Positions 28,420-49,844 of a stretch of DNA of 64,000 bases are shown here, in pieces. A program made the translations under genes and the position numbers. The DNA lies in assembly GCF_009905375.1 (NCBI RefSeq), contig NW_027420682.1, forward strand, positions 55,280 through 119,279, given 5' to 3'. The stretch's first letter is position 1; every line of letters begins with the position of its first letter. Below the pieces are notes generated by a model, which had not been told where the DNA came from, did no database searches, and saw only the letters and a program-made list of their open reading frames with translations. The stretch is from Apium graveolens. Taxonomy: Eukaryota; Streptophyta; Magnoliopsida; Apiales; Apiaceae.

Positions 28420-29813
28420 TGGAAGATGTGGTTGCCTTGAAGCTTGAGCTTGCTCGTGGGGTGGGCAAGCATATTTTATTTGTCCTACTCATAAAGGAGG
28501 TGGCAAAGAGGGGCGGGCTTTTACCAAATATTAAGCATATTTAACTCAGCGAATTACCCTAGTATCTGCTTTTATTTTGTGGGTACATGGGATACTTTAA
28601 AACGATAGATATTAATGTTTTTTGATGTTGGCTCAACAATCATTATTCATTTCCTTAAGGGATTTCGCGTTCAGTTAGAAATTGACCTAAATTTGTTTCA
28701 TCATATTATTGAATCCGTTAGCATTATAAGTTTTTTACAGTTGTATTAGCCCATACATAATTGAAAGTACTTGTTTGCTTTTAATTCGGTAAAGTAGACG
28801 AGGTATACAACGTTAAAATTTGTAGTTTTATATATAAAGCCGTTTCAAGATCCGTAATAGTTATTGACTTAATGGGGTTATAGATCCTCTAGCCCCGATA
28901 AATAAAATTTAACGGAACCTACCTTTTTGGTTATGCAGATTAAAGTTATGTTCTGCAATCTAATTTATTATCACGATGATTTGAATGTCCAAAAAGTCCT
29001 TACTATTTGATTCACATATTGTGTTACTGGTCTAGTTTCTTTAACGAGGTAAATTAAGATAGGGAATTAGAAACCTATGTTATGTTTGGTCGGTGGAAAT
29101 CAACGGAGGTTATAGGGAAGATTAGAATAAAACCGAGTGAGTTAAAAATTATTAGTATAGGAAAATGTGTATGGTGAAAAGTGAATGTAGCAATCCTTCT
29201 AAAATAAAGGGTTTGAGTTCTAAAGGATGTTAAGAATGGAATGGAGCAATGAATGCATGCGAAGAACCAAAGTTTTTGTACTTTAAATTCAATCTACATC
29301 TAGCTTGTCGGTCTTTATCCTGGGCATTTGAAGGCATTTTGTTCCATCTAAGTTGGGACATCGATCCATTCTTCTTGCATTTATCTACTTCCTCAAATGA
29401 TGAATATTGTAATAATAAAGTAGTCGAAGAGCAGAGCTGCAGGTGCTTTTCTTATCCGCAGCTGAAGTGTTTGAAAATGTACATCGCCAAGACAAGCTTA
29501 TTAAATAGATACCGGCAAGGGTCAAATATAGAAGGACAAAATGGGCACTTCTAGTCGGGCATCGACTCTGGTCACTATACGTGGTCAACTTCTCACTTTT
29601 AGTCGGGCATTGATTGTGGTCAGTATATATGTCTTACCATTACGCTGGATTTACATTGCTCTTTTGAACACAGGAGACCACCTGTTTACATATTAGTAAT
29701 AGTTTCTGAAGGTGTATTAATTATGAAAAGAAGGTAGAGATTTCTGCAGCAGTTGAGTCTGGCCATGTCTGCAACAGTTGAGTCCTGCTAATATCTCAAG
29801 TATAAAGGCCAAT
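28420..29813 (+). other. Noncoding stretch before Tekay-1, with two short duplications
   Basis: No gene is supported. An imperfect 48-bp duplication is seen at about 29547-29640 (AGTCGGGCATCGACT at 29553, AGTCGGGCATTGATT at 29601). Two copies of TCTGCA(G/A)CAGTTGAGTC lie near 29742 and 29769. It ends with the CCAAT target duplication of Tekay-1 (29809-29813). Confidence 0.5.
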
Positions 29814-32800
29814 TGTTACGACCGGCATTTTATGTAATATTATTTGTTGATTGGGTATAATATTAAAGTCAAATGAAAATATATTCAATGATTGTACGCT
29901 AGTGTGAGTGAAAGTTTCTGCATTATAAATTTGCTTTGTGTAGTATATGATTTTTCAAAGCAAGAGTTTATTTAATTTCTTTATTTTTGAATTATAAGGA
30001 ATATTCTAAGCTTTGGAAAAATTTTCTTTTAAAAGGTATTTTGTTCACAAATTTTGAAAATGATTTTATAAAGTCTCTAAAAATCCAAGTTATTTTATGG
30101 TATAAATTTTATAATTTTTGAACTTGTATTTTATTTTATAAAAATAAATCATTATAAATTTTAGTTGTCATATTTATCAAATTACATAAGAGACCATGCA
30201 TGCAAATCACCCTTCTATTCTCTCAAAGGGCAAACAAGACTTTTCCAACCCCACTAACTCATTTGATTATTACCAAATTACTACCTTAGCCTTGCATGCA
30301 AAATGGCCTAACTTTAACCAAGGGACATTTTTGTAAGTTCTCACTTCCACTCATCATTTGTAAACCAAATAGCATAAAACAAAGAAATCAAAGTGGGAGA
30401 GGTCATTTTCATTCCACACTCCAACACCCCACAAATTTTCTCTCCTCCCCCTCCCACATTGCTCTTGGCCGAAGGCCAATTCCCCACCCCCCTTTCATTT
30501 TTCAATTCATTCTTCATCTTCCCAAATGTAAATCTTTTACCTACATTCATCTTATATACTTTCCAAGTATTTTGTGACTTGGAAGTTGAAGTTCCATGGA
30601 TGCATGTGTAGTTCTTATGTGATCTCCAAAGAGAAACTCTTGATTCTTGTGAATTCAAGAGCTCTCTATGAGATATATTATGTATATGTGCTAACTAAGT
30701 GTTTTATGGAGATATCATGCTTTAAAATCCTTTGCATGATACTGAAATTTTATTATATATTTATGTTTAGCCATGCATGTTAGTTTTAAGACATTAAAAT
30801 GATGATCAACCATGAGTTGCATGCTACTTTTTTCGAAATCATGTAGTTATGTTTAAAAATCTATAAATTCGAAATATGTGTGCTTAAAATAGATTGTTTT
30901 CATGATAAATTTCTTATTAATACTTAAAAGAAGTTATATTTCATGATTATTAAGGATGAGTATTAGGTGCAAGTCGATTTTGCAAGCATTTAAAACTTTA
31001 TGCCTAGCCGAAATCTTGTTATGTGCTTTCCATGAGTTGCATGTCATATATTTGGTTGCATGTTGTTGTTTTTGGGCATGGATGATCTCACCCAAGTTTA
31101 TTTTGAGAATAAGGGAGTTATTTCAGTAGATCACCATGTATAAGTCTTGGTTTAAGTATTGAGTTGTTGTTAGTTGAGTTTGTCAAGTCAAAACCTTGGA
31201 AAATGAGAGTTATAGTTTCTGCAGAAAAATCAGTATAGCACCCTGAGGTTTAGAGTGAGTTTTGACCATGTCATTGGTGTGAACTTTGAGGCTCAAGCTA
31301 CCAGAAGTTAGTATTGGGAGTATATAAAAGGTTTTAGGAGTTGGTTGGAGGATTGCATGTCATTTGGTTAGGTACACAAGTAGAATCACAAAATCTGTCC
31401 AGCAGGGGACAGTTTTGTTGCAACTTAGAAATAGGGAGATTTGACCATGTCATGGGTAGGCCCTCATTAGGCCCAATTGGGCCTTAGTTAGAGGGTATGT
31501 CAGAGAAGTTTTTCCAACCATAGTTCATAGGATATGAGCTAGAACCATGTGTCACAAGTTAATTCAAGTCAGGGCATTTTCTGCCCAGAAAAACAGGGGA
31601 ACCTTGGACTTTTAGCTTAGGCCCAAGAAGGCCCAAACCAGACCCTTGAGCCACATCAAGTTTGTGAGATGCCCTTAGGTCAGGAGAGTCTTGTGTAAAA
31701 GTTTTGAAGGAAAACTTGTAGTTTAAAAGTGTCTAATGTACTCAAGAAACCATAGTTGTCATTCTGAAATTTGCACCAGTGAGCACTATCACTTATCACA
31801 TAGTTTTAGAACACTTAGAAGTGAGTATTAGGTCGACCACCATAGTTTTAAGATAGTATAAGGTCAGTAGAGAAAAAGGCACAAGTGAGGGTCAATAGGT
31901 TTTGGATAATTTAGGAAAGGCACATCGAGTTAGGAAGCCAAAATTAGAAGACCTTGTCTAGTTTAGCGACCAAGTGACTTAAGTTGTGAGTCGAGATCAT
32001 CCAAGCCTAGTGATGCATTATGGTATATATGGTGTTAATATATGATATGTGAATATGTAGCTATGTGTGTGGAATTGTAATTTAAAAGTGAATATAAATT
32101 AAGTGCATATAGGCCTAAGTGCCATCCGTGTTTAATTTCGGGTTGTAAATAGGTTAAGATGGTAAGAATATATTATAATGAGGATTATTATTATTTATGT
32201 AGGATCTTGAGACGAGGGAAAACTTGCCATAAAAGTCGAGTGAAGCTCCAGTTGCTCCTACCAGTCAGACCAGACCAGCCTATCTCAAGGCAAGTGATTC
32301 AACTTGACCTTCGTATTTACTAAAATCAGTTCATATATATATCGATGAAACTATCCTGAGTCATTTTGATATATTTAAATCAAGCGTATCTTATGCTTAT
32401 CTTTGAATCATATAAAATGCCATGAACCCTCAAGTACTTATTGCAAGTAGATCAAAAGTCATACCATGCTAGTATACCAAAGTAATGGTGATGCCATGAT
32501 AAAATAGAGAATTTGTTATAATACTTTATTGATCCTTTTGATTATCATGCTATTGCACCCTGATGCTTTGATTCAACTCTTGAAATAACCTCGATAGAAA
32601 CTTTATCTTGATACCTAAAAGCCAATCATTTCTTAAATTCATTCATGATTATTTGATAACCCTATCCTTACCCTAAAGATTGATACCCTGTTATATCTTG
32701 AGCTGATGATCACTTTCTTTATATTTTAACACCTCTATCCTATTGGAACCAGTGATGCTTATCTTCTTGATGTTCTAATACCTATACCTTGTCTACAACC

Positions 32801-33687
32801 ATTGCTTTAAACCTAGTTTGGCATTACTCTTTCATATTATCCAATAGCCTTGCTCAATTTCCTTGTCAAAGTTCTTGTTTATGGAAACCTCTCAGTTACC
32901 CTAATATAGTAAAGTCTAGTGGATAATGGCCCTGAGATTTAGTGTCATATTTCCAGTGTTTCAAGTTGATCTATAATCCCTTGATAAAAATACAGTCAAA
33001 AGAGATTTTGTCATAAATCGGCATCAGTTTTTAAAATGATTAAAATGTGGATTTTTCAGTCCCAAAGGGGGATAAATGTTTTCTTTGAATGGTGGATCTG
33101 GACTGAGACGCGAGTCCTTTCCGCACTTATATTAGGCTTAAAAGTTGCCTAGGGATTCCCAATAATGTTTTAAAGCCCAGCGAGGTTCGGGATTACTTCG
33201 CGGCTGATCACCGGCTGTAATTCGTAGCGTCATAAAATGATTTTGATTAAGACATGATTTTAAAATTGTTTTGATGCAAGCAAAATGATGCCATCTCACA
33301 TAGTTTTTATCTCTCGTTACCTTTGGTTATGTCTTTCCATTATCGTTCTTAAAAGTATATCTCAATTTATGTTTTGTGTCGTACTGTTAGCACTTGTTGA
33401 GCATTTGGCTCACTTCTTGCTTTACCCTTATATTACAGCTAGCAGCTATGGTTAGATTCAAGCAGACTGCCCGTAAGACCTGTGATGCTGATGCTTATGT
33501 TCGAGCTCAGGTAGAATAAGTAATAATAGTTGTGTGAGGACTCGGTATTCTAAATCAGATGTAATAGTTGGTAGTGTTGGGCTGTTCCAAACCCTAAATT
33601 GTAAGATCTTGGATTTTGGTTGTGTATTCTTCATTAAAAAGATGTAATAGCTATATTTATTTTGCTGTTTAAGTTGGGGGTGTGACA
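29814..33687 (+). repeat. Tekay-1 5' LTR (3.9 kb)
   Basis: Starts TGTTACGACCGGC and ends GGGGGTGTGACA. Noncoding, except that its last 240 bp contain the first exon of the candidate accessory gene (33448-33510). A TGAGCATTTGGCTCAC motif near 33400 is shared in similar form with the minus-strand LTR at 61772-64000. Lacks a 23-bp segment present in the 3' LTR near 41884. Confidence 0.93.
33448..33510 (+). CDS. Candidate accessory gene, exon 1: histone H3-tail-like N-terminus
   Basis: ATG at 33448 with a favourable context (G at -3, G at +4). The 21 codons begin M-VRFKQTARKT. After removal of Met, residues 1-10 align without gaps to histone H3 residues 1-10 (ARTKQTARKS): R2, K4, Q5, T6, A7, R8 and K9 are identical and S10 is replaced by Thr. 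The exon ends CAG followed by GTAGAA at 33511, a good donor, in phase 0. It lies inside the 5' LTR. The 3' LTR copy (42797) has the same sequence but a TAG at codon 6 (42812). Function is inferred, not shown: it might bind readers or modifiers of H3K4/K9. The short length allows chance, but the exact register argues against it. Confidence 0.5.
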
Positions 33688-33824
33688 GGTTTTGGTATCA
33701 GAGCTACGGTTTAGAGTCCCTGGACAGCCCAAATAGGTTATAGGATATGTGTGTAGGATATAGATAATATGCGAGAGAGTAGGTTAAGTAAATTATTATT
33801 AATACTCCTCTTATTGGTTGTCAG
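33511..33824 (+). other. Predicted 314-nt intron spanning the LTR end and primer-binding site
   Basis: Donor CAG|GTAGAA (33511); acceptor CTCCTCTTATTGGTTGTCAG ending at 33824, with a pyrimidine-rich tract and TTAAT branch-like sequence before it. Removal joins two phase-0 frames. The intron includes the LTR 3' edge (33687) and the primer-binding site (33693-33704), so spliced RNA could not be reverse transcribed by the normal route and would serve only as mRNA. Confidence 0.45.
33693..33704 (+). other. Tekay-1 primer-binding site (initiator tRNA-Met)
   Basis: Canonical TGGTATCAGAGC, five bases after the LTR-terminal CA. Confidence 0.9.
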
Positions 33825-34181
33825 CAAAGGGCGCATTCCTCGTCATCCTCTGGGTCAGATGACACTATTGCTTTCTCCGTGTATGCTGAGTTGAGGCGCG
33901 AGTTCGACATGCTTCAGGGCAAGTATGACCGACTGATAGACCGACTGAAGAACGTGTATCCGGACAGCCGAAACTACGAAGGGAAGCCCAAGGAGCAGAT
34001 GACTGCGAGACTTGAGACCTTGGTTCAGTACGTCAACACTAAGCTTGAGAAGATGCCAGCGCACCGGGACCGTACCAGCCAGTATGTCATTCAGATGGTG
34101 GCGGATGAGCTCCAGAGCATTGCGAAGACGCTTCGAGAAGAAAAGACTACCAAGCCCCGTTCAGATGGAGTGGAGCCTTAG
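33825..34181 (+). CDS. Candidate accessory gene, exon 2: helical protein upstream of gag
   Basis: Open in phase with exon 1 from the predicted acceptor to TAG at 34179, 118 codons. It starts with a Ser/Asp-rich linker (SSSSSGSDD) followed by a largely helical, charged region (for example VYAELRREFDML and VADELQSIAKTLREE), likely coiled coil. No ATG lies in this frame before 33909, and an in-frame stop precedes 33791, which supports reliance on splicing; initiation at the ATG at 33909 would give a shorter product. I recognise no family. It has no stop or shift, while gag-pol has three stops. An ORF between primer-binding site and gag is not a standard part of Tekay elements as I know them. Confidence 0.55.
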   Translation, partial: QRAHSSSSSGSDDTIAFSVYAELRREFDMLQGKYDRLIDRLKNVYPDSRNYEGKPKEQMTARLETLVQYVNTKLEKMPAHRDRTSQYVIQMVADELQSIAKTLREEKTTKPRSDGVEP

Positions 34182-34492
34182 TTCTTTCCATTTACCTTTC
34201 ATGTTGTTGTACTATCAGACTCTATGGAATCCCCAGTTGTTTCCGTTTTTCCTTTAAATAAGCCTGTTATTCCTAGAATCAGACTATGTCCCAATCCTAT
34301 GTACTGTGACCTTTAAAATTTTAATAATTATGTGCTATTGTTCCATTTGCTCTCAACTGTTATTTTATGTTTTTATCATCATATCTGCTTAATTTGGAAA
34401 CTTGACCCCATATGAAAATGAGAATGCCATGCGATACCCTCGAATCATTTTATCATTCATATCTGTTTTGACACAACTCTTATTTCAGGATC
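34182..34492 (+). promoter_or_regulatory. Untranslated segment before gag with a splice-acceptor-like end
   Basis: T-rich, ending TCTTATTTCAG at 34488, four bases before the gag ATG at 34493. A polypyrimidine tract plus CAG so close to the start suggests a second acceptor that could place gag on a spliced RNA. Joining exon 1 (33510) to it would be out of frame with gag. Confidence 0.35.
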
Positions 34493-36844
34493 ATGCCTCC
34501 CAAAAAGAAGAACCCAACAACCACCTTCACCACAGACCCAAATATTCTTCTACTACTGGAAACCTTGTAACAGCAAACCAATGCTATAGCTCAACAACAA
34601 CTAACTCTTCAACAACGAATTGAAAACCAAGATAACCGTGAACCACACTAACCACCTGAACCACCAGTACCACCTAGACAAATTGTCACTTTCAAAGCTT
34701 TTCAGAATGTGAATCCACCTGTATTTCATGATACCACTGATCCAGTGATAGCTAACACATGGATCAAGGAGATGGAAAGGGCTTTTGAGTTGGTACAGTT
34801 AGGAGACGATCAGAAGATGCCGTATGCTACTTACTTCTTGAAGGGAGAAGTCATCTATTGGTGGGAATCAGTAAAGGCTATGGAAGTCACTCAGCAGGTT
34901 TCTTGGGAGAGATTTAAAAAGTTATTTCTGGACAAGTATTACCCTAAGTACATGCAGAATCAGATGGAGCTAAAATTTCTTGAGTTGAAGCAAGGGAACA
35001 TGACTGTATTGGAGTATGAGAAGAAGTTCACTGAGTTGTCAAGGTTTGTGACAAAGTATACCAGCACTGAGGAGGAAAAAGCAAAGAAATTTCAGCAAGG
35101 ATTGGAGCCTTGGGTCAGAGATAGGGTGGCTATGTTTGAGCTTGAAACTTATGCGGGAGTAGTACAGAAAGCTGCTCTGATTGAGAATAATGGGATGCAG
35201 TCAAGGAAAGAGAGGGATAACAAGAAGAGGAAGGTTCCATTTTATGGTGAAAAGTCTGAAGCTGGAAGTTCGCAAGATCGGAATGTAAAGAGGATTGGTT
35301 TCCAGAAGGGCGGAAATTTTCAAAAGAAAGGAAATTTGGACAAAAGGCAAGAATCAAAAGGGAACAACCAGGCAAGCCAAGGGCAAGTTGGAGAAGACAG
35401 GTTCCAAAGACCGGAATGCAAGAACTGTGGAAGAAGGCACCCCGGAGTATGCAATAAGCTGAGCATGACCTGTTATAGGTGCAATCAGAAGGGACATTTG
35501 GAAAATGAGTGCAAGATGCCGAAGCCAGGAGTTACGTGCTACAAGTGTGGGAAGACTGGACACATGGCTAGGGAGTGTAAGGCAATAGGACCAGTCAAAG
35601 CTCTGATGAACGTGGCAAGTACCAGTGCAAGCGTGCCAGCTGAGGTATTGGCATTACCTCCACCACCCGCACCAACCCCGCAAGCAACAGCAAGGACATT
35701 TGATCTAAAGATGAAAGATGCTGTTCAGAATTCTGAGGTGATAGCAGGTACACTTTTACTCAATAATGTCAAAGCTAAAGTATTGATTGATTCGGGAGGA
35801 ACAAGATCTTTCATATCGGAATCTTTTGTTGATAAGCTTCAATGTGAGAAAATGATTATGAGTGAGGTAGTAAATGTGGTAATTGCAAACCAAGAGAAGA
35901 TTCCTGTGAATCAATTTTGTCCAAAGTGTGAGATCGATATTTCGGGATATAAGTTTTCAGTCGACTTGATACTCTTCAAGTTGGGAGAGTTTGATATAAT
36001 TTTAGGAATGGATTGGTTAGGAGAGAATAGCGCTCAGATTAATTGTAAGACCAAGAGAGTGTATTTAAAGACGAAGAGTGGAGAGAAGGTAGTATTTAAG
36101 GGGCAGAGGCAAGAGCAACTATTTCTTACAATCGTTCAGGCTAAGAAGTTGCTTAGAAAAGGTTGTGAGTCGTTCCTAGCATACGTAGTGGATTCAGAGA
36201 GAGGCAGCCTCAGCATGGAAGATATTCCTGTAGTTAGTGAGTTCCCCGATGTGTTTCCCGACGAACTACCAGGCTTACCACCAGATCAACAAATTGAGTT
36301 TGAGCTCAACCTTGTTCCAGGAACGGAACCAGTTTCAAAGGCCCCATATAGGATGGCACCAGCAGAAATGAAAGAGTTGGCGAGCCAGCTACAAGAATTA
36401 TTGGATAAAGGAGTGATACGACCAAGTACGTCGCCATGGGCAGCCCCTGTTCTGTTTGTAAAGAAGAAAGATGGGAGTATGCGTCTATGCATAGATTACC
36501 GGGAGCTGAATAAGGTGACGATAAAAAACCGTTACCCGCTACCAAGGATATATGACCTTTTTGATCAGTTGAAGGGAGCAAAATTCTTTTCGAAGATTGA
36601 TTTGAGATCCGGATACCATCAATTAAAGATCAAAGAAGAAGATATTCCTAAGACCGCATTCAGGACCAGATATGGGCATTATGAATTCCTAGTAATGCCG
36701 TTTGGATTGACCAACGCTCCGGCCACATTTATGGATCTAATGAATCGAGTATTTAAGAAGTATTTGGACAAATTTGTCGTGGTATTTATTGATGACATCC
36801 TTATTTATTCTAAGTCGGAAGAAGAACATAAGCAGCACCTCTAG
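34493..36844 (+). pseudogene. Tekay-1 gag, protease and N-terminal RT
   Basis: Start ATG at 34493 (MPPKKKNPTTT). TAA codons at 34568 and 34649 and a TAG at 36842 interrupt one otherwise continuous frame, each one C-to-T step from CAA or CAG. Gag (from about 34700) has the retrotransposon Gag fold ([23 protein letters not shown]). Three Cys-rich knuckles follow: [26 protein letters not shown] and [14 protein letters not shown] (about 35417-35580). Protease: [13 protein letters not shown], with D-S-G present and Gly where the family usually has Ala. [33 protein letters not shown] and the catalytic [12 protein letters not shown]. Retrotransposition functions; this copy is disabled by the stops. 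Confidence 0.9.
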
Positions 36845-36850
36845 ATAGCA

Positions 36851-39106
36851 TTGGAGATACTCCGACAAGAGAAGTTGTATGCCAAGTTTACCAAATGTGA
36901 GTTTTGGTTAAAGGAAGTTCAATTTTTGGGGCATGTTATTGGAAATGAGGGAGTTAAAGTGGATCCGGCAAAGATTGAGGCAGTTATGAGTTGGAAGAGG
37001 CCAAAGACTCCTACGGAAGTGCGAAGTTTTCTAGGATTAGCCGGATACTATAGAAGATTCGTCAAGGATTTCTCGAAGATCACCACGCCATTGACCAAGT
37101 TAACCAGAAAGAATCAAAAGTTTGAATGGAGTGCAGAATGTGAAGATAGCTTTCAAGAGTTAAAGCAGAAGTTAGTAACAGCTCCGGTGTTGGTACTTCC
37201 AGATGATCAAGGGAATTTTGTAATATTCAGCGACGCTTCACATAAGGGTTTGGGTTGTGTGTTGATGCAACACAGTAAAGTGATCGCATATGCGTCAAGA
37301 CAGTTGAAGCCGCATGAGTTAAAGTACCTGACGCATGACTTGGAACTAGCCGCCATAGTGTTCGCACTCAAGATCTGGAGACATCACCTCTATGGAGAGA
37401 AGTGTGAAATCTACACGGATCACAAGAGTTTAAAGTACATTTTTACTCAGAAAGAGCTCAATATGAGGCAGAGGAGATGGCTGGAATTGATCAAGGACTA
37501 TGACTGCTCGATAAATTACCATCCTGGAAAGGAGAACGTAGTGGCCGATGCTCTCAGTAGGAAGGAGAGATTGAATATGATGATAACATCAAAAGAGTTA
37601 ACTGGAGAAATCGAAAAATTGGAATTGGAACCTTGTGCTTATGGAAAAGTTGAGGAAGTTTGTCGTGCAATGACCTTTCAGCCAACACTAGTGGAAAAGA
37701 TAAAGAAGTGTCAAGGGGAAGTAATGGAAAAAGAGAAGAATCAGTTATCTGGAGAGGAGATTAATATTCAAAGGGATGAGCAAGGGATACTAAGATTTTC
37801 ATCCAGAATATGGATTCCCCATGTACCTGAATTAAAGAATGAGATCCTCCATGAAGCCCACAATTCGAAATTTTCAATCCACCCGGGAAGCACCAAGATG
37901 TATCGAGACTTAAAGAAGAACTTTTGGTGGCCAAATATGAAGCGAGACGTGGCAGAATGGGTTGCAAAGTGCTATACCTGTCAGAAAGTAAAGGCAGAAC
38001 ATCAACGACCAAGCGGATTAATTCAGCCCCTGAAGATTCCAGAATGGAAATGGGAAAATATCGCTATGGACTTTATAGTAGGACTACCGCGAACGAAATC
38101 CGGACATGACGCAATATGGGTTATAATTGATCATCTTACGAAGTCGGCGCATTTCCTTCCAATAAACGAGAAGTCGTCATTGGACAAGTTGGTTCATTTG
38201 TATGTGCGCGAAATCGTACTAAGGCATGGAGTACCCGTATCAATAGTTTCAGACAGAGATCCCCGATTTAACTCGAGATTTTGGAAGCAATTTCAGGAAT
38301 GTCTTGGCACGAAGTTGAATATGAGCACGGCGTACCACCCGCAGACTGATGGCCAGAGTGAAAGGATAATTCAAACAATTGAAGACATGTTACGCAGTTG
38401 TGCAATCGATTTTGCAGGAAGTTGGGACGACCATTTGCCGTTGATTGAATTCTCTTACAACAACAGCTATCATTCCAGTATCGGCATGCCACCATACGAA
38501 GCTTTGTACGGGCGAAAATGTAGATCACCAACAAGTTGGGATGAAGTAGGAGAAGGAAGAATTCTCGGTTCGGATTTGGTACAACAGTTGCATGACTCGG
38601 TCAAGTTAATTCAGAGAAGGTTGCTTGCTGCTCAAGATAGACAGAGGAAGTATGCAGATCCAGTGCGTAAGGACGTTCAATTCCAAATTGGTGAAGCTGT
38701 GTTGCTGAAGGTGTCACCTAGAAAAGGGTTGATAAGATTTGGCAAGAAAGGGAAGTTAGCACCTAGATACATAGGTCCTTTTGAGATTTTGAGTCAAGTG
38801 GGAAAGGTGGCCTACGAGTTGGCCTTACCACCTCAGTATCGGCATGTGCATAATGTGTTCCATGTGTCGTTGCTTAAGAAGTACAATCCTGACGCTAGCC
38901 ATGTGATAGAATATGAACCTGTAGAAATTCAGGCAGACCTGTCATTTGTGGAGCAACCAGTTAAAATACTCGACTGGCAAGTAAAGAGTCTTAGAAATAA
39001 ATCAGTAAAGTTAGTAAAAGTACTTTGGAGGAACCCTAAGGTCGAAGAGTCGACTTGGGAGTTAGAGTCGGATATGCGTTCCCGACATCCTCATCTTTTC
39101 TCTTAG
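36851..39106 (+). pseudogene. Tekay-1 RT C-terminus, RNase H, integrase and chromodomain
   Basis: Same frame as the preceding segment, two codons after its TAG, 751 codons to TAG at 39104. RT thumb region ([26 protein letters not shown]). RNase [13 protein letters not shown] and [12 protein letters not shown] with catalytic Asp present, ending VVADALSRK. Integrase: zinc domain [18 protein letters not shown] to [11 protein letters not shown] in [16 protein letters not shown] and [10 protein letters not shown]-terminal [16 protein letters not shown] module, then a chromodomain-like tail ([27 protein letters not shown]). Chromodomains of chromovirus integrases are known to direct insertion to chromatin carrying particular histone marks. 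No internal damage in this part. Confidence 0.92.
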
Positions 39107-39126
39107 ATTCTGGGGATAGAATCCCT

Positions 39127-39140
39127 TAAGGGGAAGAGGA
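39127..39140 (+). other. Tekay-1 polypurine tract
   Basis: AAGGGGAAGAGGA directly before the TGTTACG start of the 3' LTR. Confidence 0.85.
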
Positions 39141-42100
39141 TGTTACGACCGGCATTTTATGTAATATTATTTGTTGATTGGGTATAATATTAAAGTCAAA
39201 TGAAAATATATTCAATGATTGTACGCTAGTGTGAGTGAAAATTTCTGCATTATAAATTTGTTTTGTGTAGTATATGATTTTTCAAAGCAAGAGTTTATTT
39301 AATTTCTTTATTTTTGAATTATAAGGAATATTCTAAGCTTTGGAAAAATTTTCTTTTAAAAGGTACTTTGTTCACAAATTTTGAAAATGATTTTATAAAG
39401 TCTCTAAAAATCCAAGTTATTTTATGGTATAAATTTTATAATTTTGAACTTGTATTTTATTTTATAAAAATAAATCATTATAAATTTTAGTTGTCATATT
39501 TATCAAATTACATAAGAGACCATGCATGCAAATCACCCTTCTATTCTCTCAAAGGGCAAACAAGACTTTTCCAACCCCACTAACTCATTTGATTATTACC
39601 AAATTACTACCTTAGCCTTGCATGCAAAATGGCCTAACTTTAACCAAGGGACATTTTTGTAAGTTCTCACTTCCACTCATCATTTGTAAACCAAATAGCA
39701 TAAAACAAAGAAATCAAAGTGGGAGAGGTCATTCTCATTCCACACTCCAACACCCCACAAATTTTCTCTCCTCCCCCTCCCACATTGCTCTCGGTCGAAG
39801 GCCAATTCCCCACCCCCCCTTTCATTTTTCAATTCATTCTTCATCTTCCCAAGTGTAAATCTTTTACCTACATTCATCTTATATACTTTCCAAGTATTTT
39901 GTAACTTGGAAGTTGAAGTTCCATGGATGCATGTGTAGTTCTTATGTGATCTCCAAAGAGAAACTCTTGATTCTTGTGAATTCAAGAGCTCTCTATGAGA
40001 TATATTATGTATATGTGCTAACTAAGTGTTTTATGGAGATATCATGCTTTAAAATCCTTTGCATGCTACTGAAATTTTATTATATATTTATGTTTAGCCA
40101 TGCATGTTAGTTTTAAGACATTAAAATGATGATCAACCATGAGTTTGCATGCTACTTTTTTCGAAATCATGTAGTTATGTTTAAAAATCTATAAATTCAA
40201 AATATGTGTGCTTAAAATAGATTGTTTTCATGATAAATTTCTTATTAATACTTAAAAGAAGTTATATTTCATGATTATTAAGGATGAGTATTAGGTGCAA
40301 GTCGATTTTGCAAGCATTTAAAACTTTATGCCTAGCCGAAATCTTGTTATGTGCTTTCCATGAGTTGCATGTTATATATTTGGTTGCATGTTGTTGTTTT
40401 TGGGCATGGATGATCTCACCCAAGTTTATTTTGAGAATAAGGGAGTTATTTCAGTAGATCACCATGTATAAGTCTTGGTTTAAGTATTGAGTTGTTGTTA
40501 GTTGAGTTTGTCAAGTCAAAACCTTGGAAAATGAGAGTTATAGTTTCTGCAGAAAAATCAGTATAGCACCCTGAGGTTTAGAGTGAGTTTTGACCATGTC
40601 ATTGATGTGCACTTTGAGGCCCAAGCTACCAGAAGTTAGTATTGGGAGTATATAAAAGGTTTTAGGAGTTGGTTGGAGGATTGCATGTCATTTTCTTAGG
40701 TGCACAAGTAGAATCACAAAATCTGTCCAGCAGGGGACAGTTTTGTTGCAACTTAGAAATAGGGAGATTTGACCATGTCATGGGTAGGCCCTCATTAGTC
40801 CCAATTGGGCCTTAGTTAGAGGGTATGTCAGAGAAGTTTTTGCAACCATAGTTCATAGGATATGAGCTAGAACCATGTGTCACAAGTTAATTCAAGTCAG
40901 GGCATTTTTCTGCCCAGAAAAACAGGGGAACCTTGGATTTTAGCTTAGGCCCAAGAAGGCCCAAACCAGACCCTTGAGCCACATCAAGTTTGTGAGATGC
41001 CCTTTTGGTCAGGAGAGTCTTGTGTAAATGTTTTGAAGGAAAACTTGTAGTTTAAGAGTGTCTAATGTACTCAAGACACAATAGTTGTCATTCTGAAATT
41101 TGCACCAGTGAGCACTATCACTTATCACATAGTTTTAGAACACTTAGAAGTGAGTATTAGGTCGACCACCATAGTTGTAAGATAGTATAAGGTCAGTAGA
41201 GCAAAAGGCACAAGTGAGGGTCAATAGGTTTTGGATAATTTAGGAAAGGCACATCGAGTTAGGAATCCAAAATTAGAAGACCTTGTCTAGTTTAGCGACC
41301 AAGTGACTTAAGTTGTGAGTCGAGATCATCCAAGCCTAGTATTGCATTATGGTATATATGGTGTTAATATATGATATGTGAATATGTGGCTATGTGTGTG
41401 CAATTGTAATTTAAAAGTGAATATAAATTAAGTGCATATAGACCTAAGTGCCATCCGTGTTTAATTTCGGGTTGTAAATAGGTTAAGATGGTAAGAATAT
41501 ATTATAATGAGGATTATTATTATTTATGTAGGATCTCGAGACGAGGGAAAACTTGTCATAAAAGTCGAGTGAAGCTCCAGTTGCTCCTACCAGTCAGACC
41601 AGACCAGCCTATCTCAAGGCTAGTGATTCAACTTGACCTTCGTATTTACTAAAATCAGTTCATATATATATCGATGCAACTATCCTGAGTCATTTTGATA
41701 TATTTAAATCAAGCGTATCTTATGTTTATCTTTGAATCATATAAAATGCCATGAACCCTCAAGTACTTATTGCAAGTAGATCAAAAGTCATACCATGCTA
41801 GTATACCAAAGTAATGGTAATGCCATGATAAAATAGAGAATTTGTTATAATACTTATTGATCCTTTTGATTATCATGCTATTGATCCCTGAGAAATCTTC
41901 ATATTGCACCCTGATGCTTTGATTCAACTCTTGAAATAACCTCGATAGAAACTTTATCTTGATACCTAAAAGCCAATCATTTCTTAAATTCATTCATGAT
42001 TGTTTGATAACCCTATCCTTACCCTAAAGATTGATACCCTGTTATATCTTGAGCTGATGATCACTTTCTTTATATTTTAACACCTCTATCCTATTGGAAC

Positions 42101-43035
42101 CAGTGATGCTTATCTTCTTGATGTTCTAATACCTATACCTTGTCTACAACCATTGCTTTAAGCCTAGTTTGGCATTACTCTTTCATATTATCCAATAGTC
42201 TTGCTCAATTTCCTTGTCAAGTTCTTGTTTATGGAAACCTCTCAGTTACCCTAATATAGTAAAGTCTAGTGGATCATGGCCCTGAGATTTAGTGTCATAT
42301 TTCCAGTGTTTCAAGTTGATCTATAATCCCTTGATAAAAATACAGTCAAAAGAGATTTTGTCATAAATCGGCATCAGTTTTTAAAATGATTAAAATGTGG
42401 ATTTTTCAGTCCCAAAGGGGATAAATGTTTTCTTTGAATGGTGGATCTGGACTGAGACGCGAGTCCTTTCTGCACTTATATTAGGCTTAAAAGTTTCCTA
42501 GGGATTCCCAATAATGTTTTAGAACTCAGCGAGGTTCGGGATTACTTCGCGGCTGATCACCGGCTGTAATCCGTAGCGTCATAAAATGATTTTGATTAAT
42601 ACATGATTTTAAAATTGTTTTGATGCAATCAAAATGATGCCATCTCACATAGTTTTTATCTCTCGTTACCTTTGGTTATGTCTTTCCATTATCATTCTTA
42701 AAAGTATATCTTAATTTATGTTTTGTGTCATACTGTTAGAACTTGTTGAGCATTTGGCTCACTTCTTGCTTTACCCTTATATTACAGCTAGCAGTTATGG
42801 TTAGATTCAAGTAGACTGCCCGTAAGACCTGTGATGCTGATGCTTATGTTCGAGCTCAGGTAGAATAAGTAATAATAGTTGTGTGAGGACTCGGTATTCT
42901 AAATCAGATGTAATAGTTGGTAGTGTTGGGCTGTTCCAAACCCTAACTATAAGATCTTGGATTTTGGTTGTGTATTCTTCATTAAAAAGATGTAATAGCT
43001 ATATTTATTTTGCTGTTTAAGTTGGGGGTGTGACA
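39141..43035 (+). repeat. Tekay-1 3' LTR (3.9 kb)
   Basis: Nearly identical to 29814-33687, with a few substitutions, single-base indels and a 23-bp segment (about 41884) absent from the 5' copy. Followed by CCAAT (43036-43040). It carries the H3-like exon 1 sequence at 42797 with a nonsense codon at position 6. Confidence 0.93.
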
Positions 43036-43040
43036 CCAAT

Positions 43041-45242: not shown

Positions 45243-45974
45243 CTATTTCCTTGATTGTCTAGATTTCTTCCCAAGCCTTCTGTTGTTTTCTTCAATTTGA
45301 TCCTGAAGTTGTCTGTGGAATTCAAGTTCATTAGCTTCTGAGAGATTTAGCATGTCCTGCATTTCCAAAAGAGTCTCATTTTTAGAGATACTCAATTGGT
45401 CCTCCAATATGAAGAATTTTTTAACACCTTTGTCATCCATGAATTCCATCAGCGAATAGGGCCTTAGATGCACTCTTTTTCCTGTAAAGGGAATAGATAG
45501 AGTTTTTGGAATTCCATCTTTGGCTTTAGTACTCCTTAGTTCCTCAATCCTCTTTAGAACTATTCTTTTTGCAGTCATATTGTATCCAAAGTTCTTTTTG
45601 AAGGATGAGTAGACTTTAATCAGAACAGATTGGCTTTCTTGGAGAATCCTGTGAAGAGGCCATGTTATCTCTTTCCCTCCCTTGTATTTAAATACCAGTC
45701 TTTCAGGAAGGTGTTTGTAAGCATCAATTCCTCTTACTTCTTCCAGTTCATCCAAGTAGAGATTCAAGTCTGATAATTCCTTGATATCACAAATGTACAT
45801 GAGATCTCTCTTGTTGACTGTGGGTTGGGATTTGGTTAGAGCTTTGGATCTTAGAGATACAGGCTTCACTTTCTTGCTAGCTTTAGTCTTTGTCTTCTTT
45901 GTCTTGAAGATGGGTAAATTTAGCTCAAGAATTGGTAAACTATCCCAGTTTACTAGCTCATCCTTAGAAACAAT
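45243..45974 (-). pseudogene. SIRE-B ORF3, C-terminal fragment
   Basis: Open for 243 codons on the minus strand from the insertion border at 45974 to the stop at 45243, with no internal stop. It begins in mid-protein (VSKDELVNWDSLPILEL), then a Lys/Thr-rich stretch (TKKTKTKASKK), then a region with DLMYICDIKELSDLNLY and YNMTAKRIVLKRIEELR, ending in a Glu/Asn/Gln-rich helix (EFHRQLQDQIEENNRR) and a basic tail. It occupies the same place relative to the polypurine tract as ORF3 in SIRE-A1. Truncated at its N-terminus only by the SIRE-A2 insertion. Function unknown. Confidence 0.7.
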
Positions 45975-45976
45975 TG

Positions 45977-46597
45977 TGTTAGGTCACACACACTGTAGAA
46001 GGGGGTTGAATACAGTGTTTATCACAATCAAATCAAATATAAGAACTTAAGTAACAGAAAACAGATTTTATTCAACACAATAAACTCTGTTACAATATGG
46101 AACTGTCCTCTCTCAGTGATGAACAAATTATCACGAGAGCTGCTAGAGTTATAAAGAATAATAATTTCGATAATTGTAACAGTTATAGTGTAAACTCTAT
46201 GCATGTGTTTATATACTACACAATTACAAGATAATCTTCTAATTGATATGGAATATAATTCCGCTTCCTAAAATATATCAACTAGTTATCTTTTCTTCCA
46301 AGTATTCTATTATTCATAGAATTCCTTCTTCATGCACAATTCTTTCTGTCTTAGTCTCGATCTTCTTTCTTTTCAATCAGCTGCATGCCTTATCTAAAAG
46401 TCATCTTAAGTCCTGATATTATCTCCTGATAAATATCTTCTGAACCTTAAGTTCTGATAACTTAAGTTCTGATATCTTAAGTTCTGTCTTCAGTATAAGT
46501 GCTGATTTCCAGTTAAGTATTGATTTGTCCTGTAAGGTAAGATCTGAAAACTAAACACAAATCATATTACACATGACATTATCAAATATATCTAACA
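45977..46597 (-). repeat. SIRE-A2 3' LTR
   Basis: 621 bp, homologous to the SIRE-A1 LTRs. Three TTAAGTTCTGATA-type words stand in tandem at about 46446-46490. Confidence 0.9.
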
Positions 46598-46612
46598 GTC
46601 TCCCCCAACTTG
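46598..46612 (-). other. SIRE-A2 polypurine tract
   Basis: GTCTCCCCCAACTTG, next to the LTR-terminal CA. Confidence 0.8.
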
Positions 46613-46779
46613 TAAATTAGCATAATATACAAGTTCAACAGATATTTGATGATGTCAAAAACATTAAGTACAAATGCATGAGAATTTGACTAGATAACTA
46701 CAACTTATAGTCCTTTCAGCTTTACTATCTTTAACTTTTGATAACAGCTTCAGTCTGTATAAACTTCAGAATTTAAGTA

Positions 46780-49481
46780 GTTATAGATCTTTGACTTGGC
46801 TTCAATTACTGATCTCTTTGATATCAGGAGTTGTTCTGAGATAGTTCTTTAACAAACATCTCTCAGCATATTCAAGTTCATTAACCATCCTCCTTTTGAC
46901 ATTCTTCAATTCAGCTGTATCTTCTCCAGTTTAAAAAATAGCTGCTCTGAGATCATTTATCTTAGCTTTTCTTATCTCCTGATCTAGTCTGATTAAATAT
47001 GCCTTGTCAGACTCAAGATTGAATTCCACAGCCTTATAACCCAGAAAAGTAGTTATAATCTTACCAGTGTTAGGCTTCATATCGACAATATCACCCTTGT
47101 GATCTTTGTACTTGGGACAATATGTGCTGTCAGACTTTACAGAGTAAAGCTTCTTCTGTCTTTGAAATTTGAGTCTTCAAATAATTTGCATCACTATCTG
47201 TTAATCTGTTCTTCACTTGAAGTAAGAATAAAACATGTTACAGTTCCTCAAAATACTTCAGTGGTATAGCATTCTGCCTAATATGGTATACCCTTTCATC
47301 TGTCATAAAATATAACAAGATAAGTTCTTTCAAGAAGGTATGGTAAACCATTTGTACATATTCAAGTCGATTCAATCTTTCAGGAGTTGCTCCAAAACCT
47401 GGTTCACTTAAAGAAGTTGGATCATTGGTTGTGTTCTGTATTCTTCTTTCATCAGCACTACCCAATCCAGATTTATCTCTTCCTTCTTTTCCTGTAACAA
47501 CTCTTTCTTCAAAACCACTTGTTGCGGTCTTCAAAGATTGAGTTTGTTTAGCTTTGGTGAATCCTGGTAGGAGTAACTTTGAAGGTTTAACATGAGCAAT
47601 GTCAGAGGTTTCCTTTTCCTTATCTTCTGATATCAAGCCAACTTGAGCTAAGTCAGAGGTTGCTTGCTTCACTGTCATATCAGAACTTACTAAATCTTGA
47701 CTCTGAACAACATGAGCCATGTCAGAGGTTGTTTGAAAATTCTTCTTATGCATCAGAGTAAGATTAACATCTGCTTCTTCATTAATTATTTCTTCATCCA
47801 TAACAGACATATAAACCTTTACAGGTTCATCAACTTTTTCTTTGCCCTTGGACCTTGGATCTATCTCCACCTGTGATTTGGCTTTAATTGCCTCATGATT
47901 TGTCCTTTCTTTTATCACAATGCCTTTAGCCTTAGGAAGTTTCTTTTCAACAACAGAAGCTTTAGATTTGAAGTTGACTTTTTCTAACTTAAGTCTAGCT
48001 TCTTCTTCCTTTAGACTCTCAAAGTCCATTCCTGGATTTTCTTTCAGATGTAATTGTCTTGAAATTTCCTCATCAAGTTCCAGATGTTCATCAGAACTTA
48101 TCCTTTTACCAGTATCAGAACTTATTCTTCTCCCAGTATTAGAACTTGTTCTTTGACTTATAGTTCCAGCTTTACTTGATGAAAATCCTTTGCCTTGACC
48201 TTGACCTCTACCCTTGTTAGAATTTCCCTGGTCATCATTTTCATCATCATTTCCTTTCAGTGTCTGAATAGATTTGCATTTGGACTTAATCACTTTCTCC
48301 CCCTTTTTGGCATCAGCAGGTAATAGAAGAGAGACAAGTAATTCCACTGAGGATTGGATCTCATTGAGTTGATTTTGGTGAGAAGCTTGATTCTTTAGAA
48401 TTTCTTCAATTTGAACTTGTTGCTTCTCCTGAGTTTTCTCAATGTAGGCAATTCTGTCAAAGGCTGGCTTGAAAAATATGTTCTTTTCAAGTTCAGATTC
48501 AGATCTTGCTGGATCAAGTTCTCTTAAATTTTATTCACCTTGTCATGAGTTATTGAGTGTTGACCTTGAAGGTGCCTTGTACTCAATGCAGTAACTCTCA
48601 GCTATGCCTTGAAATCATCATTTATCAGCATTTCATCAGCTTTTGCAAGATGCTCAGCAAGAATCTTTTCAGAAGGAATAAAACTAACTGAGTTTCATTC
48701 TTTAGTCCACTCCTTTTCTCTAGGAGTTTCACTCCAAGGTACTGGTGCTTCCCTTGTAACAAACTTCTTGACTAAATCAGCTTTATGAACAGTTTGTTGA
48801 GGTGCATGTCCTGATGGACAAGCTGCATCAGCATCTAAATTGGCAGCAGCTTCACCCGTAATTTCTTCATTGGCAGCATCCGAATTTGTAGATCCTGCAG
48901 TATCAGTATCCTCTGGTAAAATAGCAGTATGTGAGGCTATAGAGGCTTCAACATCATCCTCTAAATTCTGATCCGCAGCCAGGTTCCGATCAACATTCAA
49001 AAGTGATATTGTTGGTGGAGTGAGTTGAATTTGTGGAGCTTCCAAGTACAAAACCTCAGGCACAATCAGGTTATGAATATCAATTTCAGAACTTGTACCC
49101 GGTTTTTCAGTATGTACTGGATCAACTATAGGTGACATAGAAGGTGTAGGCATTTTATCTTGAGCAGTTTCTGGTTGTGCAGTTTCTGGTTGTGCAGAAG
49201 GAAGTAATTCAATAACAACTGGTTCTGTTGAGATCAGAGATTCCTGATCCCCTTCTTTAGCTACTTCCACTACATCTGAATCTGACTCAACTATGTTCCT
49301 ATGAGCTCTCTGTTTCTTTACTTTCCTCAAAGGTGGAGACACTCTAGGAGTTTTATCATCAGAATTTAATTTTCTAAGCCTTTTGAGGGGCCTAGAACTC
49401 CCAGTTACAGTATCTTTCTGAGAAGAAATCTTCTCAGCTTCTATAATAACAGGTTCTGATATAGGAACCTGTTCCTCAGTT
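46780..49481 (-). pseudogene. SIRE-A2 ORF3, degenerate
   Basis: Best segments are 49342-48695 (acidic region with KEGDQESLIS as in SIRE-A1) and 48347-47238 (coiled-coil end VSLLLPADAKKGEKV, a Ser/Gly/Arg-rich stretch, LKEEEARLKLEKVNFKSKAS, and the RLNRLEYVQM region). In between (48694-48348) and beyond (47237-46780) the homology continues with shifts and stops. Compared with SIRE-A1, the first ~300 codons (MAPKDLIF... and the Pro/Ser/Gln linker) are missing. The sequence upstream of about 49481 is unrelated to SIRE-A1 ORF3 until the promoter region. Function unknown. Confidence 0.65.
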
Positions 49482-49844
49482 GTTTTCTCAAATCAACAGA
49501 ATTTAATCAAAACATTCATCACAAAATAAGATTAAAAAGTTGATGAAGTAAAGATTAAAACTTGCAGTTCAACATGTACAATCACATAATTTGAGAAACA
49601 AAGAACAAATCTTGCAATTAATCAAAATTTCATTAATATATCAGATGATTACATTCGATGAAATTAAACAATTACATGCAAAAAATTACAAGACAGTCCT
49701 AATCTACGATTCCTAACATCAACAGCTTTAGTCCTAAGCTAAGAAGCCTGACAAAGCTGACGGTGAAGAGAACGGATGGATAATACTTAATTCTTCTTCC
49801 TACTTTCAACAAAGAGAACAACAAGACGAATGATTTTGCTCCTG

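What the first reader, a model, noticed from the sequence alone, without database searches (positions are those of the whole stretch)
33448..34181. Chromovirus with a spliced accessory gene whose N-terminus mimics the histone H3 tail
Seen: a strong-context ATG inside the 5' LTR opens 21 codons beginning M-VRFKQTARKT and ends at CAG|GTAGAA. The next good acceptor (33824) continues in phase 0 into 118 open codons with a Ser/Asp linker and helical domain. After Met removal, seven of the first ten residues equal H3 residues 1-10 in exact register, including K4, R8 and K9, and S10 is Thr. Known: chromovirus integrases such as this one end in a chromodomain, a module that reads histone tails. Inference: the element makes a histone-mimic protein from a spliced RNA, perhaps to recruit or titrate H3K4/K9 readers or modifiers, or to bind its own chromodomain. 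I know of no description of such a gene in Tekay elements, but I cannot search.
Basis: partly seen in the sequence, partly recalled or inferred. Interest (0 to 1): 0.88.

Follow-up and report, generated by a model that had tools for sequence, protein, structure and literature searches.

The report
Celery retrotransposon gene with histone-H3 tail
A jumping gene of celery and hogweed carries a small accessory gene in which one exon begins almost exactly like the tail of histone H3, and comparison of many copies indicates that this tail was kept by selection, which suggests that the element uses a false histone tail to deal with the plant's silencing machinery.

Summary
The window is celery; the element is a Tekay-like chromovirus. 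Exon 1 (33448-33510) lies in the 5' LTR, exon 2 (33825-34181) before gag. In the window 7 of 10 residues match the H3 tail. Of 90 celery loci chosen mostly on exon 2, 79 have exon 1, and 60 of those 79 match H3 1-10 at 8 or 9 residues. Three annotated Heracleum sosnowskyi proteins start M-VRTKQTARKS and use the same exon join, as do four celery gene models, in which, however, the tail lies inside a longer predicted protein. Between two celery subfamilies the tail codons differ at five third positions, all silent (pN/pS 0.07; exon 2 0.45), so the peptide is under purifying selection there; for the window's subfamily against the larger one (A) the test is not decisive. Likeness to celery H3 genes stops at about codon 12. 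Splicing rests on gene models and conserved sites; no read was seen. Function is inferred: most likely a decoy or tether for H3K9-pathway proteins. Binding to its own chromodomain is weakened, since this chromodomain type lacks the methyl-lysine cage. No description was found in the held literature.

The parts
29814..33687 (+). 5' LTR (TGTTACGACC...GTGTGACA)
   Evidence: 97.7% identical to 39141-43035 by blastn, K2P 0.0152
31321..31331 (+). TATA-box-like TATATAAAAGG, candidate promoter, about 2.1 kb upstream of the exon 1 ATG
   Evidence: motif scan only, one of 13 TATA motifs in the LTR; none seen in 1.2 kb of one subfamily A copy
31553..31675 (+). candidate leader exon in the LTR
   Evidence: matches the upstream part of celery gene models P0011 and P0017 (71-82% by tblastn; a stop in this frame in the window)
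33437..33438 (+). AG of a putative acceptor before exon 1 (...ttatattacag|ctagcagctATG)
   Evidence: AG in 94 of 107 loci; phase fits the LAAM joint of models P0005, P0011, P0015; P0017 instead reads through from about 33391 and P0001 is unclear
33448..33510 (+). exon 1: MVRFKQTARKTCDADAYVRAQ, H3-tail-like
33511..33512 (+). splice donor GT (CAG|GTAGAA)
   Evidence: CAG|GTA in 81 of 107 loci with exon 1; used in gene models P0001, P0005, P0015, P0017
33693..33704 (+). primer-binding-site-like TGGTATCAGAGC, inside the intron
   Evidence: tRNA-Met assignment recalled
33823..33824 (+). splice acceptor AG
   Evidence: AG in 78 of 101 distinct copies
33825..34181 (+). exon 2: 118 codons, Ser/Asp linker and three predicted helices
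   Evidence: between-subfamily pN/pS 0.36-0.46
34493..36844 (+). gag-protease-RT region; stop at codon 26 of gag (34568-34570), open again from 34652
36845..39106 (+). RT-RNaseH-integrase-chromodomain part of pol, after an in-frame stop
38885..39103 (+). integrase C-terminal chromodomain (73 aa tested)
   Evidence: PF00385, E 6.5e-5, 23.2 bits against a cut-off of 25.1
39141..43035 (+). 3' LTR; its exon 1 copy (ATG 42797) has a stop in place of Q5
29809..29813 (+). target site duplication CCAAT (with 43036-43040)

Best explanation
The element makes, from a spliced RNA, a small basic protein of about 139 residues. Its N-terminus copies the H3 tail (V-RTKQTARKS/T; VRFKQTARKT in this copy's subfamily) and its second part is a helical domain that may oligomerise. 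Shown: the peptide, its exact register, its conservation, selection on it between two subfamilies, and the exon layout. Inferred: splicing in vivo, start at the exon 1 ATG, Met removal, nuclear location and function. Most likely function: the tail engages host H3K9-pathway writers and readers (SUVH4/5/6-type methyltransferases, CMT-type methylases, ADCP1-type readers). By titrating them or being methylated in place of H3, it lowers H3K9me2-linked silencing of the element's own DNA; this is a decoy. Tethering of the element's particle or integrase to such readers is the second option.
For: PDB sequence search with Heracleum P0008: 86 hits at E up to 10; the best 60, the ones shown, are all named histone H3 or an H3-type protein and align at its N-terminus, best E 0.06, so weak singly but uniform. 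Same exon join in celery models P0001, P0005, P0015, P0017 and Heracleum P0008, P0010, P0012. 79 of 90 loci chosen mostly on exon 2 have exon 1; identity to H3 1-10 is 9 in 19, 8 in 41, 7 in 12, 6 in 4, 5 in 3. Tail changes between A and B: pS 0.626, pN 0.047 on open copies, 0.662 and 0.078 on all; 5 silent to 0 replacement majority differences, Fisher p 0.0004. T6 101, K9 97, K4 96 of 101. The H3K9me2 reader ADCP1 contacts R2, K4 and K9me2 (PMC6318295 section 6), all kept here.
Against: No RNA, protein or binding data. In all five celery gene models with exon 1 (P0001, P0005, P0011, P0015, P0017) the predicted protein starts further upstream, so the tail would be internal; only the Heracleum models start at it. 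V replaces A1 in 96 of 101 copies, and the window's subfamily has F3 and T10. For A against F the tail ratio is 0.49, no tighter than exon 2 (0.45); one C copy gives 3.41 (A-C) and 0.65 (C-F); within A 1.46. Only 2 open B copies carry the strongest ratio. The fold of exon 2 is uncertain (pLDDT 70.6, pTM 0.41), with no significant fold match.
Confidence: 0.42

Rival explanations
1. Tether: the displayed H3 tail recruits host H3K9 readers to the element's particle or integrase, steering integration into heterochromatin, beside or in place of the cage-less chromodomain.
For: Group II chromodomains lack cage aromatics and have no identified partner (PMC3350952 passages); chromodomain at the end of this integrase; a helical second domain could bind Gag or integrase.
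Against: The same passages tell of a group II chromodomain (Tma) that co-localises with an HP1-like protein, so the domain may still find heterochromatin unaided. No sign of fusion to Gag or Pol; integration sites of copies were not analysed here.
Confidence: 0.2
2. The tail serves as a nuclear import or chaperone signal, H3 style, and the working part is the helical domain. It need not be N-terminal.
For: The H3 tail is a known import substrate (recalled); protein calculated basic, pI 9.2; celery gene models place the tail internally.
Against: T6, Q5 and A7 are kept too, and an import signal should tolerate other basic arrangements; majority changes between A and B in the tail are silent only.
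Confidence: 0.17
3. Capture of an H3 gene start with no selection: the likeness is a relic.
For: Subfamily A matches the best celery H3 gene at 27 of 30 bases over codons 3-12; within A the tail ratio is not below 1.
Against: The tail is on both sides of a well-supported split (99/95), so it is not recent; silent differences between A and B; likeness falls to 9-12 of 33 bases right after codon 12.
Confidence: 0.07
4. Exon 1 is only an upstream ORF or leader peptide of the genomic RNA; splicing to exon 2 is not important. Unspliced RNA would still give a 23-aa peptide with the H3 tail (VE then stop after the donor).
For: The intron gives an in-frame stop soon after the donor in the window; many other copies run further before a stop.
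Against: Exon 2 is itself under constraint, and phase 0 joins are kept in A, B, C, F and in Heracleum models.
Confidence: 0.1
5. Chance resemblance.
For: None beyond the imperfect 7 of 10 match in the window.
Against: Expected 0.0003 per window; 9 of 10 in three Heracleum models and 19 celery loci.
Confidence: 0.01

Closest known systems
5' additional ORFs (5'aORF) of Tekay chromoviruses in sunflower, rice, maize and sorghum (PMC11728184: section 2.5 and passages seen; Steinbauerova 2011 only as cited there)
   Same: Sense ORF between 5' LTR and gag in Tekay elements, conserved among copies, function unknown, helical and disordered parts.
   Different: The sunflower one is a single ORF of 402 aa; the main text has no hit for 'histone', 'splic' or 'intron'. 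Here about 139 aa, spliced, starting in the LTR. Their sequences were not held, so homology was not tested.
Spliced subgenomic RNA of plant LTR retrotransposons, such as barley Bagy2 env-like (PMC7264820, passages)
   Same: An accessory ORF reached by splicing of element RNA.
   Different: Bagy2's ORF lies 3' of pol and is env-like; here the ORF lies before gag and its first coding exon is in the LTR.
Histone H3 mimics of host and viral proteins (G9a/EHMT-type mimicry, PMC10611923, passages; influenza NS1 recalled)
   Same: Short H3-like motif around K9 (ARKS/T) in a non-histone protein.
   Different: Here the likeness starts right after a Met codon, runs in exact register over up to 11 residues and covers K4 as well as K9, in a retrotransposon.
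VANC anti-silencing proteins of VANDAL transposons (PMC10398659, abstract and outline)
   Same: Transposon-encoded protein that counters epigenetic silencing (there shown, here proposed).
   Different: VANCs act on specific DNA sequences of DNA transposons; no likeness was tested here.
Histone H3 genes of celery
   Same: Codons 3-12 of subfamily A encode the same peptide.
   Different: No H3 body; likeness stops after codon 12.

Membership tests
Tekay chromovirus | Ty3/gypsy gag-pol order with integrase C-terminal chromodomain | tested here: met
   Pfam gag, protease, RT, RNase H, integrase zinc-binding in order; rve core 24.7 bits, under its cut-off of 32.6; Chromo 23.2 bits, under its cut-off of 25.1 but E 6.5e-5
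Tekay chromovirus | Reverse transcriptase or integrase falls in the Tekay clade of a reference tree | not tested
Tekay chromovirus | Group II chromodomain without first and usually third cage aromatic | tested here: inconclusive
   W is kept and the third position is P where solved chromodomain 2m2l has Y; the first position was judged against a recalled HP1 sequence
Tekay 5'aORF | Sense ORF between 5' LTR and gag, conserved in family copies | tested here: met
   exon 2 position; open in 56 of 101 copies, 19 of 24 of the window's subfamily
Tekay 5'aORF | Sequence homology to known 5'aORF proteins | not testable with these tools
   their sequences are not in the tools; protein searches returned only Apium, Heracleum and unnamed contigs (one search scored a capped list)
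Histone H3 mimic | H3-like sequence in exact register, beyond chance | tested here: met
Histone H3 mimic | Selection at the peptide level | tested here: met
   A against B; not resolved for A against F or for the single C copy
Histone H3 mimic | Tail at a free N-terminus | tested here: inconclusive
   three Heracleum models start at it; five celery models start upstream
Histone H3 mimic | Bound or modified by an H3 writer or reader | not testable with these tools
   needs peptide binding or methylation assay
Histone H3 gene or pseudogene | Likeness extends past the tail | tested here: not met
   9-12 of 33 bases after codon 12, for nine copies against ten H3 gene starts

The most novel reading that the evidence does not exclude
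A plant retrotransposon lineage whose integrase chromodomain lost methyl-lysine reading turned the interaction round: it carries an H3 tail as an exon of its own LTR, so that host H3K9 writers and readers, or its own group II chromodomain, bind the element's protein instead of chromatin. To my knowledge and in the literature held here it would be the first histone-tail mimic of a retrotransposon.
Probability: 0.38. Interest if true: 0.92.

Novelty: new variant of a known kind. Interest (0 to 1): 0.82.

Why it matters
Accessory ORFs of plant LTR retrotransposons have no known function. Here one shows its likely target in its own sequence, on both sides of an old split among celery subfamilies, with Heracleum on one side. 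If the tail works as a decoy, it would be a transposon counter-defence aimed at H3K9 methylation, the core of plant transposon silencing. It also offers something testable for group II chromodomains, whose partner is unknown, and a natural series of tail variants (V1, F3, T10) for testing readers.

Full report
What the window is. The window lies in a genome of 3,332,948,439 bases. Contig C9 is 289,786,985 bases long, which fits the 3.33 Gb, 11 chromosomes and 289.78 Mb N50 given for celery in the abstract of PMC8051603 (listing), and the best protein match is 'hypothetical protein AgCh_012955 [Apium graveolens]'. The element runs from 29814 to 43035 with a CCAAT target site duplication, two LTRs of about 3.9 kb at K2P 0.0152 (about 0.6 to 1.1 million years at recalled rates), a TGGTATCAGAGC primer site, and gag, protease, RT, RNase H, integrase and chromodomain. 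This copy has a stop early in gag and one in pol, so it is not intact. That it is Tekay was not tested against a reference tree.

The observation. Exon 1 and exon 2 read as described. Of 2,643 ATGs on both strands, this one alone reaches 7 of 10 residues of H3 1-10; its own 3' LTR copy has 6 and a stop.

Relatives. Searching the joined protein gave 11 proteins at E up to 1, and profile searches (the last on a capped candidate list); named ones are all Apium or Heracleum, the rest unnamed contigs. Heracleum P0008 (cluster of 13), P0010 and P0012 begin MVRTKQTARKS, nine of ten residues of H3 1-10 after Met, and continue ...AQQRAHSSSS (P0012 has C for R) where the exons join. Celery models P0001, P0005, P0015 and P0017 use the same join; P0011 has exon 1 but joins another sequence. 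Against my reading, all five celery models start upstream of exon 1, so that the tail is internal in them. What lies upstream differs: in P0011 and P0017 it matches LTR sequence at 31553-31675, some 230-350 bases behind a TATA-like motif at 31321; in P0005 it is protease sequence of such an element; in P0001 and P0015 it did not match the element. P0005, P0011 and P0015 reach exon 1 through LAAM, which fits the AG at 33438; P0017 reads in from about 33391; P0001 (PAAM) is unclear. The matched LTR stretch has a stop in the window. The celery cv. Challenger annotation kept only models with Iso-Seq or Tag-Seq support and removed models overlapping annotated transposons (PMC12148408, passages); that AgCh_ names belong to it is my inference, and such support need not cover this junction.

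Copies in celery. A genome search with P0008 scored 150 places. I read 90 of them (30 given by the tool and 60 fetched, mostly in rank order, some skipped unseen) plus 28 loci at 23 of the 40 places listed by the window-like search. Exon 1 was found in 28 of 28 of the latter, which were chosen with a query that included exon 1, and in 79 of 90 of the former, most of whose matches cover exon 2 (11 misses). The 118 loci give 112 distinct sequences, 101 with exon 1. In these 101, V1 is kept in 96, R2 88, T3 76 (F 24), K4 96, Q5 87 (K 10), T6 101, A7 84 (T 11), R8 88, K9 97, and position 10 is S in 56 or T in 39. Many departures at R2 and R8 are C or H, as C-to-T decay in old copies would give.

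Subfamilies and selection. By tail codons and donor context there are groups A (59), B (13), C (5) and F (24, the window's). A and B have different majority codons for V1, R2, Q5, A7 and S10, always silent: 5 silent to 0 replacement (Fisher p 0.0004 treating sites as independent). On copies with open exons and canonical inner splice sites (35 of 101; 34 used: A 14, B 2, C 1, F 17; one recombinant set aside) pN/pS for codons 2-11 is 0.07 for A-B, 0.23 for B-F, 0.49 for A-F. A-C and C-F rest on one C copy and give 3.41 and 0.65, from 0.2 and 2.7 silent changes. For exon 2 it is 0.36-0.46 between subfamilies; for the rest of exon 1 it is 0.43 for A-B, 0.50 A-F, 0.37 B-F, 0.38 C-F, 1.09 A-C. Within A it is 1.46 for the tail and 0.47 for exon 2; I read the tail value as decay after insertion, but it is no support. 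With all 101 copies A/C-B gives 0.12. So selection on the tail is clear for A-B, fair for B-F, and not resolved for F against A, where F3 and T10 changed.

Age. A tree of exon 2 (27 rows) puts Heracleum with celery A/B/C (99/95), away from celery F. The H3-like tail is on both sides, so it is older than that split, unless moved by recombination, which occurs: L082 and L099 join an F-type exon 1 to an exon 2 of the other kind.

Origin. Ten celery H3 gene starts were compared with nine copies. Over codons 3-12 the best H3 gene matches A-type copies at 26 or 27 of 30 bases, B at 25, F at 19; the next 33 bases match at 9-12. The H3 genes differ much in codon use among themselves, so capture and convergence cannot be told apart, but any capture was short or has been erased outside the tail.

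Gene anatomy. An acceptor-like ...ttctacag|ctagcaatc precedes the ATG in most A, B, C and F copies shown (AG in 94 of 107 loci), CAG|GTA follows exon 1 in 81 of 107, and an AG precedes exon 2 in 78 of 101. The primer site sits in the intron. Inferred: promoter near 31321, leader exon, an LTR intron, exon 1, a second intron, exon 2. The AlphaFold2 models show a low-confidence tail and three main helices (pLDDT 66.8 and 70.6, pTM 0.41); no fold match is significant.

Mechanism. The conserved residues R2, K4 and K9 are those the plant H3K9me2 reader ADCP1 contacts; A7, R8 and S10 make no direct contact there (PMC6318295 section 6). The further conservation of Q5 to R8 points to readers or writers that grip the QTARK strand, such as SET and chromodomain proteins (recalled). 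V1 argues against readers that need A1 (recalled). I therefore favour a decoy or substrate for the H3K9 pathway, then a tether, then an import signal.

Known or new. Tekay 5'aORFs are known, with conserved but unexplained proteins (PMC11728184, section 2.5). The 2019 survey looked only for extra ORFs of at least 250 codons (PMC6317226, passages) and would have missed this one. The literature searches aimed at this question showed no histone-tail mimic of a retrotransposon.

Noticed in passing
G000 C7:180.04-180.48 Mb and contigs C684, C685, C1422, C2988, C3902, C4164: Dense array of divergent H3-like gene pieces (matching H3 45-81 and 78-134 at about 70-84%), nearly all without a matched N-terminal tail; perhaps a lineage-specific H3 variant cluster.
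   Followed up: no
P0001, P0005, P0011, P0015 (celery gene models): The LTR exon is joined to unrelated or displaced upstream sequences, and in P0011 to an unrelated downstream one, so the LTR may act as an exon trap that puts an H3-like segment into other transcripts.
   Followed up: partly
L082 and L099: Recombinant copies: window-type exon 1 with exon 2 of the other subfamilies (L082).
   Followed up: partly
window 45243-49492, - strand: Three long open frames (246, 430 and 265 codons) without Pfam match, perhaps parts of another mobile element.
   Followed up: no
window 33448-33516: Unspliced RNA would still encode a 23-residue peptide with the H3-like tail (VE then stop after the donor).
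   Followed up: no
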